Positions 11,632-49,270 of a stretch of 64,000 nucleotides of DNA are shown here, piece by piece. The position numbers were made by a program, and so were the translations under genes. The notes below the pieces were generated by a model that ran no database searches, was not told the origin of the DNA, and worked only from the letters and a program-made list of their open reading frames with translations. Position 1 is the first letter of the stretch; every line of letters begins with the position of its first letter. The stretch covers positions 23,210 to 87,209 of IMG/VR virus record IMGVR_UViG_3300033143_004671; one strand, 5' to 3'. The DNA is from a virus.

Positions 11632-12578
11632 ACGTTGGATTACTCAATCTAGATGAGCTGACTAAAACTCCTAGAGGCAGTTCAATCGTGGGCGGCGTTT
11701 TCCCTAACTTAGCCATGATGAAGGTCTCCCAGTATCACAAACGGAAAGGAGATAATGTAACGCGCTATGCGAAGATCGCCCATAGTACAGGCTACTATGA
11801 TAGGATATACGCCTTCTCCGTATTCACCTGGTCGAGTAAGAAACAGGTTACGAGTGATATGATATGTGGAGGTTCTGGTTTCGATCTGTGCACCGTCTTA
11901 CCAGAGGAGATCGAAAACTCGCAACCCGACTATTCCCTATATCCAAAGTGCAAACCGGCCCTAGGATTCTTAACAAGAGGATGTATACGTAAGTGTGAGT
12001 TTTGTATAGTACCAGAAAAAGAAGGAAAGATTCATCCTTACAGGGACATCGAGGAGGTAGCCTCGCGGGGAGAAGATGTTGTCTTAATGGACAATAATAT
12101 CCTAGCTTGTAAGTACGGTTTGGATCAGATACAAAAAATCATCGACCTCCATCTAAGAGTAGACTTCAACCAAGGACTAGACGCCAGGCTAATATCGAGG
12201 CGAGTGGCCAAACTACTAGTCCAAGTACGATGGCTACAACCTATCCGCATGGCATGTGATTCTTCCAACGAGTTAGAACCAGTATTACGAGCTACAGAAC
12301 TGCTCGGAGAAGAAGGTTGTGGCCATAAGTCACATACTATACTCATGCTAGTAAAGGACGACATAGGGGATGCTAATAAACGTGCCGAAAAGTTGAAAGA
12401 GCATGGCCTTCGTCCTTTCGCCATGGCATACATGGATAGGGAAGGTAGAGTCTATCCTCCAGCCAAACGCTACGCCAATTATGTCAACAACCGCTTCGCC
12501 TTCAATACCGTTTCTTGGGAAGACTACAAACAGAACTACACAAAACCTAGTAGTGATAAAGGTGCGAGATTTTTCTAG
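11628..12578 (+). CDS. Radical SAM enzyme with N-terminal Rossmann-like (B12-binding-like) domain
   Basis: 316 residues. CIRKCEFC (Cys119, 123, 126) is the cluster-binding motif. The first 110 residues look like the cobalamin-binding-like domain often fused to such enzymes (KVSQYHKRKGDNVTRYAK). FNQGLDARL and the later strand-helix pattern complete a partial TIM barrel. Placed between helicase and SNF2 genes it may act on nucleotides or RNA, but no substrate can be read. It ends in ARFF, as does the next full gene. Confidence 0.8.
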   Translation: MNVGLLNLDELTKTPRGSSIVGGVFPNLAMMKVSQYHKRKGDNVTRYAKIAHSTGYYDRIYAFSVFTWSSKKQVTSDMICGGSGFDLCTVLPEEIENSQPDYSLYPKCKPALGFLTRGCIRKCEFCIVPEKEGKIHPYRDIEEVASRGEDVVLMDNNILACKYGLDQIQKIIDLHLRVDFNQGLDARLISRRVAKLLVQVRWLQPIRMACDSSNELEPVLRATELLGEEGCGHKSHTILMLVKDDIGDANKRAEKLKEHGLRPFAMAYMDREGRVYPPAKRYANYVNNRFAFNTVSWEDYKQNYTKPSSDKGARFF

Positions 12579-12640
12579 TGTCCTCCTATCCCAAAAACCT
12601 GACGGAGGAGGATACGGATGATTGGGATAATAGTAAATGA
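12578..12640 (+). pseudogene. Remnant start of the SNF2 helicase gene (20 aa)
   Basis: GTG at 12578 overlaps the radical SAM stop and opens MSSYPKNLTEEDTDDWDNSK, then TGA overlapping the next ATG. The real SNF2 protein at 13575 starts MSLSYPKNLTEEDTDD. The same 36 bases occur in both places (12583-12618 and 13583-13618). This is a left-behind copy of the helicase gene start, now serving as a 5' leader to the PP-loop gene. Confidence 0.8.
12583..12618 (+). repeat. Direct repeat copy 1 bordering the PP-loop gene
   Basis: 36 bases identical to 13583-13618, exactly 1000 bases apart. Similarity extends leftward in weaker form through the stop codons (CGAGATTTTTCTAG versus CGATTCTTCTAA). Confidence 0.95.
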
Positions 12641-39592: not shown

Positions 39593-40774
39593 TTACATAG
39601 TAACCAATTCTTCCTTCGATACTCTTTCATTTTTGACGTTCAATATGTCTTTGAATAGTTCTATGAACTGTCCCGCTGTTCTAGCCGGATCAAACTCCCT
39701 CTCGGCCCTGCCTCTATTCGTCTCGATGCACTGTTCCTTATGCGTCCTCCAATCCTCCCAAGCATCATCCATCGCTTCCGAGAACCCCGTCAAATCCTCC
39801 TCGTCCGCACTATACAACACATAGGGATTTCCATAGCCAGCAACCACATTTAGACCACATGCCAACGCCTCGCGAATCGTCCTCGTGGCGATCTTGTGAG
39901 GTGTAATGAGCATATCGCCTGCCGAGTAAACCGTTCTGAGATTACTGACGATAGGCTTCACCTCACCCAATATACCCCTATCCTTCAAACAGTCGAATAG
40001 AGTGTCCCTCGCCAATCCGTTACCATCTATTCCATAAATATGAAGTTTGGCGCCTTCGTGTTTTTCCGCGAACAGGACAAAGGCGTTGAGAATATGGAAC
40101 GGGTCCTTATCCTTCCGCCAAATGTCGGCCATCACAACGTTGATTTCTCCCTTATTCCCACCGAAGTCATAATCAGTCTCCTCCCTGGTCCAGTAGTCGA
40201 GATCGACAAAAGGCTGAAATTGCCGAACGGGCTGGAAGACAAGTTTCCAGTACCGCTCGAATCCCGGCCACAAGGTCACCATGCATTTCCATCTTTCGTC
40301 CTGCATCATATCCTTGTACATCGAGTAGATCGGTGACCCACCATCCCGCTCGATCCGATATGAGCTATTAGGCCGTCCATGTGCCACATGAACTCTCGGT
40401 ATATCCAGAGTATCGAAGGCGGGTGTCAGGCCACCATGGCTTACTATCACATCCGATGTTTTGGCAAAAGCAAAGTCGGCTATTACAACACCCCGATCTG
40501 CGGAGTAGGCCGGAGGGCGGATACCTACCTCGTCCTTCTTATCGACTACACTGAACACATAGTCGCACTTCGGGCACTTCACCCCACGGCTGCTTCTGGC
40601 AAACACCTTGCCCCGCTTCTCCCTCGAAGACGGTCTTGGATCGACAATCATTGCATTGACACCTAAGGCCCGCTCCGCCTTCACGAGTTCGCGGACAGTC
40701 TCGTACATACCCGATAGATGGGATGTAACGGGAACTACGTGACTCACTCTCAACTTTTTCTTTCGTCTCTTCAT
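39593..40774 (-). CDS. GT-B glycosyltransferase (family 4-like) in the tail region
   Basis: 393 residues. N-terminus LRVSHVVPVTSHLSGMYETV is a Rossmann domain. VVMADIWRKDKDPFHILNAF and ATRTIREALACGLNVVAGYG give the C-terminal donor-binding domain with its acidic residue. An unusual CPKC segment interrupts the first domain (about 66-69). In a virion operon the enzyme may glycosylate fibres or change the host receptor. Confidence 0.8.
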   Translation of the reverse strand: MKRRKKKLRVSHVVPVTSHLSGMYETVRELVKAERALGVNAMIVDPRPSSREKRGKVFARSSRGVKCPKCDYVFSVVDKKDEVGIRPPAYSADRGVVIADFAFAKTSDVIVSHGGLTPAFDTLDIPRVHVAHGRPNSSYRIERDGGSPIYSMYKDMMQDERWKCMVTLWPGFERYWKLVFQPVRQFQPFVDLDYWTREETDYDFGGNKGEINVVMADIWRKDKDPFHILNAFVLFAEKHEGAKLHIYGIDGNGLARDTLFDCLKDRGILGEVKPIVSNLRTVYSAGDMLITPHKIATRTIREALACGLNVVAGYGNPYVLYSADEEDLTGFSEAMDDAWEDWRTHKEQCIETNRGRAEREFDPARTAGQFIELFKDILNVKNERVSKEELVTM

Positions 40775-43174: not shown

Positions 43175-43564
43175 TCATCTTTGCTGCACATACACGGAGG
43201 CCGTCGTATCACTACCCGATGCTGCGGAAGCCTCCAACTTCACCGCAAACAATCCTTTCACCTTCATCCACAAACTACCCGTACCGGACAAGGCGAGAGA
43301 AGTAAAATCTGTACCCGCCCCTTCAATCGGTGGTGTGATGTTGGTCACAAAATCTGACTCGGCATTTGCTATCACTTGGTACGCAGCATCAGGATGTGGC
43401 TTGATGCTTACCTGAAAGGCGTCGAATGCCTTATGAGGGGAGTTCTCGATAGACATCCACATATCCGTCGCCCCCTCGCGAACAAAAATCTCAGCAAGTT
43501 CACCGGTCGATGCCGCTGTAATCGCCACATCCAGGAATGATTGTTTCCAATAAGAACTAGCCAT
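43175..43564 (-). CDS. Putative structural protein, 129 aa
   Basis: Beta-rich with MASSYWKQSFLDVAITAAST start and VKGLFAVKLEASAASGSD near the end. By position, a small head or fibre-associated protein. Unrecognised. Confidence 0.5.
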   Translation of the reverse strand: MASSYWKQSFLDVAITAASTGELAEIFVREGATDMWMSIENSPHKAFDAFQVSIKPHPDAAYQVIANAESDFVTNITPPIEGAGTDFTSLALSGTGSLWMKVKGLFAVKLEASAASGSDTTASVYVQQR

Positions 43565-43691
43565 CTTCAGTTCCCTTAGATGGCTGGTTTGTCGTAATCC
43601 AAACCGGCCATCTTTCTCAGTACCTCACCGTCGCTAACCTGTCCCCGAGGTACGGTGTCCAATGGACAGGTCACTAACACAGCACAGCGAT

Positions 43692-43756
43692 TCCCCGCAT
43701 GGGGTTGGTGAGTGGAATATTTCACCCTCACCCTTTAGCTATGTGCCTAGCTATTC
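43692..43756 (-). repeat. 65-nt structured repeat, copy A
   Basis: About 89% identical to 44792-44856. Contains three hairpins: CCCC GCAT GGGG, GGTGAG...CTCACC with an inner stem, and TAGCTA TGTGCC TAGCTA. It overlaps the last codons of the 127-aa gene. Confidence 0.85.
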
Positions 43757-44134
43757 TTCTTCAGTCTCGGCGATCCTTCTTCGCCTTTTCTTTTTGGCTT
43801 TTCTCGGATCGGTTCCCACATCAGCTTCCTCGTTCGTCCTCGTGGCAATAAGTTTTGCGATAGGGCGAGTTTTGTCGATTGATTGGATCAACCGGTTGGC
43901 TATCCTGGGGGGAACCCACACCTCTGCTGATGTCTCGAAATCCCACACAATCCGGATCTTACCATCGGAACCTACTTCCTGTTTTTTAGTCGGGGCATAG
44001 TTAGTTCCTTCATCGACAAAATCACCTTTCTTGTTTACCTCTACCGATGAAGAAATTGTGACATACCGATGAGGCTGAATCTGTATCAGCATCGTCGGCG
44101 CCTCTTCCTTAGGATCGAACCTATACGCAGCCAT
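43751..44134 (-). CDS. Putative head protein, 127 aa
   Basis: Begins MAAYRFDPKEEAPTMLIQIQ; ends with a basic-acidic tail (DPRKAKKKRRRRIAETEEE). Possibly a minor capsid or neck protein. Its stop codon lies inside repeat copy A. Confidence 0.5.
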   Translation of the reverse strand: MAAYRFDPKEEAPTMLIQIQPHRYVTISSSVEVNKKGDFVDEGTNYAPTKKQEVGSDGKIRIVWDFETSAEVWVPPRIANRLIQSIDKTRPIAKLIATRTNEEADVGTDPRKAKKKRRRRIAETEEE

Positions 44135-44244
44135 CTCACATCTCCGACGCCTTGCTCCTTTCGGCAGCTCGCGTCTAAACCTGATCGCCCGCGTTAACCG
44201 ACGACCAAGTGCTTCTCACAAACCTTACCGTGCCTACGGCGTGC

Positions 44245-44703
44245 CTACGGCGTGATACAAACATCGCTTCCGTCGGCTCCCAAGTAGAATACACCCGACA
44301 CTCCGGTATCGCTAGTCGCGATACCGGTAAACTTAATCCCATCGCTCTCGCCAGAAGCGTCCTCGGAAGCCGACAGGTATATTGTGCTCTGAGCACCAAG
44401 CATAAGCTTTACAGTGTCGCTTAGCCTGACATCACCACCCTGAAAATGCCAGTCACCGGTCAGCTTCGTATCGGTCCCATCATGCGTGATCGATGCATCA
44501 CCAGCATCACCAAACTCAAGTTTTACAGTATCGGACAAGCGAAGGTCCGCACCTTCTATATCCAGTACGCCGTTGGACGAGTCATACCGGAACGCCACGT
44601 CACCATCCGTCCCGAAGTAGAACTCTTTGTCATCTCGCATCCAAACGTCATCGAACGTCTTCTGGAATGCACATGCCGAACGTCCACTAGGAATCGCTCC
44701 CAT
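44245..44703 (-). CDS. Putative capsid decoration or head fibre protein, 152 aa
   Basis: Internal repeat of the LRLSDTVKLEFGDAGDASIT / VRLSDTVKLMLGAQSTIYLS type, a beta-strand repeat seen in phage fibres and decoration proteins. Asp/Gly/Ser-rich. Lies between the two 65-nt repeats. Confidence 0.55.
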   Translation of the reverse strand: MGAIPSGRSACAFQKTFDDVWMRDDKEFYFGTDGDVAFRYDSSNGVLDIEGADLRLSDTVKLEFGDAGDASITHDGTDTKLTGDWHFQGGDVRLSDTVKLMLGAQSTIYLSASEDASGESDGIKFTGIATSDTGVSGVFYLGADGSDVCITP

Positions 44704-44791
44704 GATTTTTACCTCTGTCCGGTCTTATCTCCGATCTGATATGAGCGCCGGACAGCTCTATCAGACCCTGGACACAACACGACACGACACA

Positions 44792-44856
44792 TCCCCGCGT
44801 GGGGTTGGTGAGTGGATGTTTCATCCCTCACCCTTTAGCTATGTGCCTAGCTATTC
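44792..44856 (-). repeat. 65-nt structured repeat, copy B
   Basis: Second copy of 43692-43756, 1100 bases away. The inner stem differs in sequence but still pairs (GGATG TTT CATCC), so the changes are compensatory. Confidence 0.85.
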
Positions 44857-44981
44857 CATATTCAGTTTTCATTCGAGGTCGTGGGTGCCGGGCGGCAGGG
44901 CCAGGAAGAAGGAACCCTGCCAGCCCAGCACCCGACCTCAACACCCAGTATCGTACTGGGGGCCCATCGAGGCCTAGTTCA

Positions 44982-45488
44982 CTAATACGCTGTGCGAGCA
45001 CCGGCCCACGGTGCTTCAAGCAAATCGTGGCCGATAAACACAGCAGAGATTTTACTTCCGGTTCCATCGGAGTCATATTGCACGTTGACATACCTGCTCA
45101 CGTTCGGGAGGTTGATAATATACGTACCATCCTCCGTCAGGTTTGCAATGGTATTGGACGAGACAGTAACATCACTGATCGCCGTACCCAGGTTGCCCTG
45201 TGCATAAAAACTCGAACGGTCAGAAGCAATCAAAACCTTTGCCGTGCCGTCGCTCGCGACAGCGGACAACGCAGTACCACTCGTGGCAAAGTTTGAAGCC
45301 GATGAGGTCCAAACTTCGACGTTCGCCTGATCACTACCAGCGGCATTATCCAGAACGATGACCAGGGTCCCGTTCTGGGCTCCGCCCGTATCCACTTCGT
45401 TGAAGATCAGATCGCTACCGGCCGCGCCTGTGGCGACGTTGTTCATCATCTGGGCGAATCTGGTTTTGAAAATGTTACCTTTCGGCAT
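44982..45488 (-). CDS. Putative capsid cement/head protein, 168 aa
   Basis: Directly downstream of the major capsid gene. Beta-rich and Ala/Ser/Gly/Thr-rich (VTVSSNTIANLTEDGTYIIN), typical of capsid-stabilising proteins. Unrecognised at family level. Confidence 0.55.
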   Translation of the reverse strand: MPKGNIFKTRFAQMMNNVATGAAGSDLIFNEVDTGGAQNGTLVIVLDNAAGSDQANVEVWTSSASNFATSGTALSAVASDGTAKVLIASDRSSFYAQGNLGTAISDVTVSSNTIANLTEDGTYIINLPNVSRYVNVQYDSDGTGSKISAVFIGHDLLEAPWAGARTAY

Positions 45489-45503: not shown

Positions 45504-46604
45504 CTACGCCTGCAGACCCTTGACGACCACGAAGGCGCCGGGCTGTCTCAGAACCGAACCGACGTGTCGGACGAGTCTGATGGCAATCTGATCTAGTTCG
45601 AAGTAGCGATCACTGGAAGCCTCGATACGCATCGCGCCATTGTCGCCGAGTAGGAGTTCCGACCATCGTCCACCGACCACGTACGACTCGGTCGCGGCGG
45701 GACGGTTTACGATGGATACCTTTGTAGTATGACGGAAGGGAGCACCTTCGATGTTTATCACACCGTTAGCACTGACCCCTTGTCCGGAGCCTTCAGCGAA
45801 GATGTACCTACCGTTGCCATCCTTAAGCTTGCCCAGAGTATGGGCAGTTCTCGGGTGACCGATCCAACCAGTCAACTCCGCATTGGTGTTCAGGCGGACA
45901 TTGTAAATTGCATCCTTAAACGTATCAAACGTCGGGGATGCACTAATGTCCGTAGAAACAATACGAGGATGGTAGTAGATACCCAGCGGCTGTTGACCAC
46001 CGGTACCTTGCAGGATAACCACGTCTTCCTCCAAGGCCATCTCTTCGGCGAGATCCTGGCGTACCAACGCATCAATCGACGTATTGGCATTCTCGATAAG
46101 CTCGCGACTCGTCTTATAGAGGCAGACCGCCTTCTTGAGTTCCAGGGAATCATTACCGAACTCCAGAGTGGTATCCTCTGTGATCGTCGTGTTCTCTGCA
46201 CCCCAAGAAATCGTGGTCGAGGCATCGATCCGATTCATCGTGAGTTTACTACCAGGGAGCGTAATCGTACGAACGCCAGGCATGGCCCGAACCACTGCCG
46301 TCTCTTTCAAGAGCGGAATGATCTCACTCTGCAAAAGCTCAGGAACAAGCACACCACCACGGGTGCCCGTGTCCTGTCCGAGGGCCTTCTCGTAGAGTGC
46401 CTTCTCGACCTCGGCATCGGACCAGTCATCTAGCGTCACACCACGAAGATACTTGGAGATTGAAACCTTCTCCTCTTTCACTACCGCGTCGGCAGAACCC
46501 TGGCTTTTTCTAATGCCCTTTGTCAGACTTGTGGAAAATGCCTTTGCAATGCCTTCGCGGATAGTAGCCAGAAGTTGGGTCCGATCTTCTTTCTTGATCT
46601 TCAT
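45504..46604 (-). CDS. Major capsid protein (HK97 fold)
   Basis: 366 residues. After a ~95-residue N-terminal arm/delta region (charged, helical) comes GGVLVPELLQSEIIPLLKET, the classic HK97 spine entry, then LYKTSRELIENANTSIDALV, EEDVVILQGTGGQQPLGIYY and GWIGHPRTAHTLGKLKDGNG. The N-terminal arm is probably cut off by the prohead protease. Forms the icosahedral shell. Confidence 0.92.
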   Translation of the reverse strand: MKIKKEDRTQLLATIREGIAKAFSTSLTKGIRKSQGSADAVVKEEKVSISKYLRGVTLDDWSDAEVEKALYEKALGQDTGTRGGVLVPELLQSEIIPLLKETAVVRAMPGVRTITLPGSKLTMNRIDASTTISWGAENTTITEDTTLEFGNDSLELKKAVCLYKTSRELIENANTSIDALVRQDLAEEMALEEDVVILQGTGGQQPLGIYYHPRIVSTDISASPTFDTFKDAIYNVRLNTNAELTGWIGHPRTAHTLGKLKDGNGRYIFAEGSGQGVSANGVINIEGAPFRHTTKVSIVNRPAATESYVVGGRWSELLLGDNGAMRIEASSDRYFELDQIAIRLVRHVGSVLRQPGAFVVVKGLQA

Positions 46605-47773: not shown

Positions 47774-48460
47774 ATGATACGAACCTGCCTGACTTGTAAG
47801 CGCACATTCCAGTCAGATGAGAATATCTACTGCTCGAAGAAGTGTTGTCCCGACAAGACCGATCTGACCGGAGCCCCGACTAGAACGAAAAGCAAAACCC
47901 AAAAAAGGAGGACCTGCGAAACCTGTTTAGCCTCCTTCACTCCTCCCTCGCATGGACCGGACTATGTATACTGCTCCCGAACCTGCACACCTAAAGGACG
48001 CAACAGAAACGGAAATCTTCGGGCCCCCCCTCATACTTGTTATGACAATACCGAATATAGGGACAAACAAAGCAAGGCGTGGAAAGAATACTGGAAGCGA
48101 TGGCGGGAAGAGAACCCGAGGCCCCGCAGACCCTCGGGAGCCTTTCCCGACAACTGGTCGTCTATACGTAAAACCATCATCGGACGAGACGAGGGCACCT
48201 GCCTGGTCTGTCATCAACAGATGGACGAGGTAACCGTCCACTTCATAGACGAGGACAGGACTCACGTATCACCAAACAACCTGGTCACTGTCTGTACCCA
48301 ATGCCATGAAAGCAAAGTTCACAGGATGCCTCCTACGAAACTCAAGGTGAGTGAACGGACGAAACAATGGTTAAAGAACAGGGACCGCTGGAGACGATAC
48401 TTTGAATCGGTGATGTCTAATGAGAGTATGAGGGAGAAGAATAGCTCACTAAGGCTCTAG
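47774..48460 (+). CDS. HNH endonuclease with zinc-finger N-terminus
   Basis: 228 residues. N-terminus has CLTC...CSKKC and CETC...CSRTC treble-clef-like zinc fingers. C-terminus has CLVCHQQMDEVTVHFIDED, then NNLVTVCTQCHESKVH: the HNH core with two CxxC zinc pairs and a catalytic His. It is the only rightward gene in the late region and has its own promoter, as expected for a free-standing homing endonuclease. Leader AGAAAGGACAAAC. Confidence 0.85.
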   Translation: MIRTCLTCKRTFQSDENIYCSKKCCPDKTDLTGAPTRTKSKTQKRRTCETCLASFTPPSHGPDYVYCSRTCTPKGRNRNGNLRAPPHTCYDNTEYRDKQSKAWKEYWKRWREENPRPRRPSGAFPDNWSSIRKTIIGRDEGTCLVCHQQMDEVTVHFIDEDRTHVSPNNLVTVCTQCHESKVHRMPPTKLKVSERTKQWLKNRDRWRRYFESVMSNESMREKNSSLRL

Positions 48461-49008: not shown

Positions 49009-49082
49009 AGGACCCGGCTGGACTCGAACCAGCGGCCTGCGGATTAAAAGCCCGATGCTCTAGCCGACTGAGCTACAGGTCC
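49009..49082 (-). tRNA. tRNA-Lys (anticodon TTT)
   Basis: On the minus strand GGACCTG pairs with CGGGTCC (acceptor), GCTC...GAGC forms the D-arm, the anticodon loop is CTTTTAA, and GCTGG TTCGAGT CCAGC is the T-arm. No CCA is encoded; the discriminator reads T. The first anticodon-stem pair is mismatched. Confidence 0.85.
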
Positions 49083-49197
49083 AAAACTGCTAGGAAGCTA
49101 TGCTGACTTATTCGACCCTACTATTTTAGAAGGGCTTTTTGTCCAGAGTAGAGTTTCCTTCTTTACTACTCACCTTTTAGCAGTCTTTTTATAAGAC

Positions 49198-49270
49198 AAG
49201 GACCGGTAGGATTTGAACCTCACATCTTGCCGTTTCTTTGAACAATGCTCTACCATTGAGCTACGGTCCC
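49198..49270 (-). tRNA. Degenerate tRNA-like gene, probably a pseudo-tRNA
   Basis: Acceptor GGGACCG/CGGTCCT and D-arm GCTC AATGGTA GAGC are intact. The anticodon region (TTGTT CAAAGA AACGG) has only a six-base loop and no T33, and the T-stem needs a bulge (GTGAGG TTCAAAT CCTAC). No anticodon can be assigned safely. Confidence 0.5.

What the first reader, a model, noticed from the sequence alone, without database searches (positions are those of the whole stretch)
43692..44856. 65-nt structured repeats with compensatory changes flank two structural genes
Copies at 43692-43756 and 44792-44856 share 58 of 65 bases. The central stem differs (GTGGAATATTTCAC versus GGATGTTTCATCC) yet pairs in both, and the TAGCTA...TAGCTA and CCCC...GGGG hairpins are kept. 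Such compensation suggests selection for RNA structure in the late transcript (attenuation, processing or mRNA stability) rather than mere copying.
Basis: seen in the sequence. Interest (0 to 1): 0.65.

Follow-up and report, generated by a model that had tools for sequence, protein, structure and literature searches.

The report
Duplicated structured RNA leader in phage
Two near-identical 65-base segments in the late (structural) region of an uncultured tailed phage can each fold into three hairpins, and each is followed, just before a start codon, by a predicted RNA pseudoknot of unrelated sequence; this suggests a control element for making virion proteins, but the "compensatory changes" that drew attention to it do not hold up.

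Summary
The two copies exist as stated: 58/65 identical without gaps, only two copies in the 87,209-base contig, none expected by chance. The compensatory-change claim fails. On the gene-sense (minus) strand 18 of 21 stem pairs never vary, one changes on both sides (chance level) and two are broken. A gapped alignment needs only two substitutions and two indels. The inner stem forms in copy 2 and is largely lost in copy 1. The element lies in the gaps upstream of a 152-aa gene and a 129-aa gene, downstream of the major capsid gene. New here: 19-25 bases past each copy, ending 9-12 bases before an AUG, is a predicted 53-54-nt H-type pseudoknot (9+8 bp and 10+8 bp). The two have no detectable sequence similarity (5/5000 and 10/5000 shuffles as good). 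A third, similar one (0/5000) precedes a PAPS-reductase-like gene elsewhere. Thresholds were chosen after seeing the first two. No relative was found in phage, plasmid, viral-contig or genome collections or Rfam, so covariation cannot be tested. Best reading (0.4): a duplicated late-mRNA leader with a shared hairpin core and a gene-specific pseudoknot beside the ribosome-binding site, controlling translation and/or mRNA stability. Main rival: a copied intercistronic cassette without RNA function.

The parts
44792..44856 (-). Repeat core, copy 2: TAGCTA hairpin, GGTGAG-GGATG/CATCC-CTCACC hairpin, CCCC/GGGG hairpin
   Evidence: all three hairpins are in the minimum-free-energy fold of the 321-nt sense region
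43692..43756 (-). Repeat core, copy 1: same outer hairpins, inner stem largely lost; contains the TAG stop (43753-43751) of the 127-aa gene
44715..44767 (-). Predicted H-type pseudoknot PK2 (GGUCUGAUA/UAUCAGAUC 9 bp; CUGUCCGG/CCGGACAG 8 bp), ending 12 nt before the ATG at 44703
   Evidence: (5/5000 shuffles as good)
43620..43673 (-). Predicted H-type pseudoknot PK1 (UGACCUGUCC/GGACAGGUUA 10 bp; GUACCUCG/UGAGGUAC 8 bp), ending 9 nt before an ATG at 43611 and 56 nt before the ATG at 43564
   Evidence: (10/5000 shuffles as good)
44875..44939 (-). Long G+C-rich hairpin between the 168-aa gene and repeat copy 2, not followed by a U-tract
43576..43611 (-). 11-codon ORF (MAGLDYDKPAI) that itself folds as a strong hairpin upstream of the 129-aa gene
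   Evidence: sequence; hairpin
44245..44703 (-). 152-aa gene immediately downstream of leader 2 (beta-rich, repetitive, unknown function)
   Evidence: structure model of low confidence
43751..44134 (-). 127-aa gene between the repeats, unknown function; its stop codon lies in repeat copy 1
   Evidence: structure model of low confidence
43175..43564 (-). 129-aa gene downstream of leader 1, unknown function
44982..45488 (-). 168-aa gene between the major head protein gene and leader 2, no family match
45504..46604 (-). Major head (capsid) protein gene upstream in the same transcript direction
   Evidence: phrog_10, E = 6.3e-45

Best explanation
The repeats are the 5' part of two related leader (intercistronic) RNAs on the minus-strand late message. 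Each leader has the same order: a 65-nt core of three hairpins kept almost letter for letter, a short GUGU-rich linker, an H-type pseudoknot whose sequence differs completely between the leaders, then a ribosome-binding site and start codon. I propose that the element sets expression of the next cistron: the core acts as a shared landing or processing site (a phage or host RNA-binding protein, or an RNase), and the pseudoknot beside the start site limits or gates ribosome loading or protects the 5' end. Shown: the repeat, its position on the sense strand, statistically unusual folding, and the presence and position of the pseudoknot-capable stems. Inferred: that the pseudoknots form, that they act in RNA, and that they control translation or stability.
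For: Exact two-copy repeat in two intercistronic positions. Sense-strand intergenic fold z about -7 for 44981-44704 (-7.57 for the 321-nt stretch) and -4.0 for 43770-43550. Pseudoknot stems 9+8 and 10+8 bp, with 5/5000 and 10/5000 dinucleotide shuffles as good. Near-equal span (53/54 nt) and position (19-25 nt after the core, 9-12 nt before an AUG), although the leader sequences outside the core align little or no better than shuffles (local 1315/2000, global 113/2000). A scan of the sense strands of the 87-kb contig gives 3 such pseudoknots against a mean of 0.58 in shuffles (1 of 40 shuffles reached 3), all three intergenic although intergenic DNA is about 9% of the contig. Precedent: the T4/T2/RB69 gene 32 leader pseudoknot, 5' of the Shine-Dalgarno sequence, is an autogenous translational operator (PMC535899, PMC3014915).
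Against: The pseudoknots were first seen by eye and the scan thresholds were set afterwards, so the p-values are optimistic. Nested folds of the same segments compete. No homologues exist in the searched collections, so there is no covariation test. The core inner stem is not maintained in copy 1. In leader 1 the AUG next to the pseudoknot opens an 11-codon ORF, and the 129-aa gene starts 47 nt later. No expression data.
Confidence: 0.4

Rival explanations
1. A copied intercistronic cassette: the 65-nt segment was duplicated recently (recombination, or a mobile stem-loop like the PeSL cassettes of T4-type phages) and brackets a two-gene module (152 and 127 aa) that it may help to shuffle; near-identity reflects recent copying, with no RNA function.
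For: The copies are in direct orientation around exactly two genes of unknown function. Near-identity ends sharply outside the core. The differences are a few point and indel events that break stem pairs. Homology-bearing stem-loop cassettes that shuffle genes are known in T4-type phages, as described in PMC4503421 and PMC3950731.
Against: Does not explain the pseudoknots of unrelated sequence in the same place in both leaders, or the extreme folding of the leader. No sigma-70-like promoter lies in the repeat.
Confidence: 0.3
2. A DNA site: TAGCTA-N6-TAGCTA plus flanking palindromes bind a phage regulator (late activator, repressor or nucleoid protein), so that both genes share a promoter-type control.
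For: The most strictly kept part includes TAGCTA-GGCACA-TAGCTA, a palindromic half-site repeated at fixed spacing. TAGCTA occurs only 10 times in 87 kb, and as a close pair only in these two copies. Both copies lie upstream of genes.
Against: No recognisable promoter hexamers nearby, though only the sigma-70 type was scanned. Does not explain the hairpins and pseudoknots downstream. Host and its promoter type are unknown.
Confidence: 0.15
3. Passive mRNA processing or stability signals: hairpins cleaved by RNase III-like enzymes or blocking exonucleases, giving the segments of the late message different half-lives, without translational gating.
For: Stable hairpins between late cistrons, including a 65-nt G+C-rich hairpin at 44939-44875 with no U-tract, the expected look of a 3' stabiliser.
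Against: Does not call for a pseudoknot next to the start codon; the core hairpins are short for RNase III.
Confidence: 0.15

Closest known systems
T4/T2/RB69 gene 32 leader pseudoknot (autogenous translational operator)
   Same: H-type pseudoknot in a phage mRNA leader 5' of the Shine-Dalgarno sequence; architecture can persist while sequence diverges (PMC535899)
   Different: The T4 pseudoknot element is about 28 nt with an A/U-rich unstructured tail of UUAAA repeats and serves the ssDNA-binding protein gene. Here the pseudoknots are 53-54 nt, lie in the late structural region, follow a repeated three-hairpin core and lack UUAAA repeats.
PeSL intercistronic cassettes of T4-type phages (and the similar motif of haloarchaeal virus HGTV-1)
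   Same: Repeated stem-loop sequence between phage genes, bracketing small modules (PMC4503421, PMC3950731)
   Different: PeSLs are composite promoter-terminator motifs present at high density; here two copies, no sigma-70-like promoter, no terminator tail
Intercistronic RNase III processing sites of T7-like phages (own knowledge, not tested against a model)
   Same: Hairpins repeated between cistrons of the late message
   Different: No shared sequence demonstrated; no transcript-end data

Membership tests
Gene 32-type leader pseudoknot operator | H-type pseudoknot in the leader immediately upstream of the ribosome-binding site | tested here: met
   Stem search, shuffles and position; prediction only
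Gene 32-type leader pseudoknot operator | Unstructured A/U-rich UUAAA/UAAA repeats between pseudoknot and start | tested here: not met
   The interval is AGGUAAAAAUC in leader 2 and UGAGAAAG in leader 1, with no UUAAA repeats (sequence)
Gene 32-type leader pseudoknot operator | Downstream gene encodes the RNA-binding repressor | tested here: inconclusive
   The 152-aa and 129-aa proteins match no Pfam family and at most unknown-function PHROGs
PeSL cassette | Promoter within the element | tested here: not met
   No sigma-70-like site in either copy; other promoter types not covered
PeSL cassette | Terminator-like stem-loop | tested here: not met
   Hairpins present but no U-tract after them; the only terminator-like hit there has the weak tail CGTGTTGTGT
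Any family of Rfam 15 | Covariance-model match | tested here: not met
   No hit at gathering score; only chance-level sub-threshold hits
RNase III processing sites | Cleavage in the hairpin | not testable with these tools
   Needs RNA end mapping

The most novel reading that the evidence does not exclude
A modular class of phage late-mRNA leader: an invariant three-hairpin core shared by several cistrons, joined to a gene-specific pseudoknot next to each start codon, that together set the amounts of virion proteins made from one polycistronic message.
Probability: 0.18. Interest if true: 0.7.

Novelty: new variant of a known kind. Interest (0 to 1): 0.4.

Why it matters
How phages set unequal amounts of structural proteins from shared late transcripts is often unclear. 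[quoted passage not shown] Two or three leader pseudoknots in one phage, two of them in the capsid region and joined to a repeated core, would be a second and modular case, directly testable with reporters and chemical probing. If it is only a copied spacer, it is ordinary.

Tried and rejected
Covariation across homologues: not possible. The repeat, MCP, 168-aa protein and TerL were sought in viral contigs, the repeat and MCP in genome contigs and phage records, and the repeat in plasmids; only 24-35% identical MCP/TerL relatives were found, none with the element. The 20-nt exact match in L003 lies inside an ORF of a different phage (codons for IARHIAK) and shares none of the rest, so it was rejected as chance. 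The 32 loose-pattern viral hits showed no similarity to the full repeat. Rfam ribozymes, riboswitches and similar families: none. Stop-codon readthrough at the in-frame TAG pair in repeat 1: rejected because copy 2 does not follow an ORF ending there. A conserved coding explanation for the repeat: rejected because the indels shift frame between copies and the surrounding frames differ. Structure models of the 152-aa and 127-aa proteins were too poor to use (pLDDT 40 and 47), so no fold search was run.

Full report
Setting. The window is part of an 87,209-base IMG/VR virus record (window = bases 23210-87209). Genes run on the + strand up to about 24.9 kb of the window and mostly on the - strand afterwards. 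The finding lies in the minus-strand late region. In transcription order: major head protein (46604-45504; phrog_10, E = 6.3e-45), a 168-aa gene, repeat copy 2, a 152-aa gene, a 127-aa gene, repeat copy 1, a 129-aa gene, and a 607-aa protein with a weak tail match.

Observation. The two copies are real, unique in the contig and not due to chance. Without gaps 58/65 bases agree; with gaps the difference is two substitutions and two one-base indels. Counting pairs on the sense strand gives 18 invariant pairs, one both-sided change (264 of 500 shuffles as high) and two broken pairs. The central hairpin weakens from -16.5 to -11.5 kcal/mol. So compensation is not shown. The TAGCTA "hairpin" follows from repeating a palindrome and is not separate evidence of pairing.

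Surroundings. The sense-strand gap 44981-44704 folds far better than shuffles (z about -7), partly because of a G+C-rich hairpin at 44939-44875. The stretch 43770-43550 has z = -4. Looking past each repeat I noticed interleaved complementary stretches a-b-a'-b'. A stem search confirmed them: PK2 at 44767-44715 (9 + 8 bp) and PK1 at 43673-43620 (10 + 8 bp). In shuffles of the two leaders 5/5000 and 10/5000 were as good. They begin 25 and 19 nt after the core, span 53 and 54 nt and end 12 and 9 nt before an AUG. Outside the core the leaders show no significant sequence similarity, so the shared architecture is not simply shared ancestry of letters. In leader 1 the nearest AUG opens an 11-codon ORF; the 129-aa gene starts 47 nt further on.

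Wider check. With stems of at least 9 and 8 bp within 62 nt, the sense strands of the 87-kb contig hold 3 pseudoknots, shuffles 0.58 on average, and 1 of 40 shuffles reached 3. The third, + strand 12578-12629, contains an AGGAGG and lies just before a gene with a PAPS-reductase domain. All three are intergenic, while intergenic DNA is about 9% of the contig. These thresholds were chosen after the first two were seen, so the figures are indicative only.

Relatives. No close relative of this phage was found in viral contigs, genome contigs, phage or plasmid records by the queries used; capsid and terminase relatives are 24-35% identical, and none of those records carries the core. Rfam has no match.

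Interpretation. I favour a cis-acting leader RNA: a shared core plus a gene-specific pseudoknot next to the ribosome-binding site, acting on translation or message stability (0.4). The T4 gene 32 operator shows that such placement can work, but this is not a member of that family: no UUAAA tail and no identified repressor gene. Intercistronic stem-loop cassettes (PeSL) are a serious rival kind; their promoter and terminator features were not met. A recent copied spacer, a DNA-binding site and passive RNA processing remain open.

Noticed in passing
window 12578-12629 (+): Predicted H-type pseudoknot (10+8 bp, 0/5000 shuffles as good) containing an AGGAGG, just upstream of a PAPS-reductase-domain gene at 12637.
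   Followed up: partly
window 44875-44939 (-): Very stable G+C-rich hairpin downstream of the 168-aa gene, not followed by a U-tract; possible mRNA 3' stabiliser or processing site.
   Followed up: partly
window 43576-43611 (-): 11-codon ORF whose own sequence forms a near-perfect hairpin between the pseudoknot and the 129-aa gene; possible leader peptide.
   Followed up: no
window 47774-48460 (+): 228-aa ORF on the opposite strand inside the late region, with paired CxxC-type cysteine motifs reminiscent of HNH endonucleases by eye; no Pfam match.
   Followed up: no
window 49009-49270 (-): Two Rfam tRNA matches; ARAGORN confirms only tRNA-Lys (TTT) at 49009-49082.
   Followed up: no
window 39593-40774 (-): Glycosyltransferase-like gene (Pfam matches just below the curated cut-offs) near the virion genes.
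   Followed up: no
contig G000, about 500 nt gap at window coordinates -4523 to -4023 (+): Intergenic region upstream of the window with strongly structured sense strand (z = -5.2).
   Followed up: no
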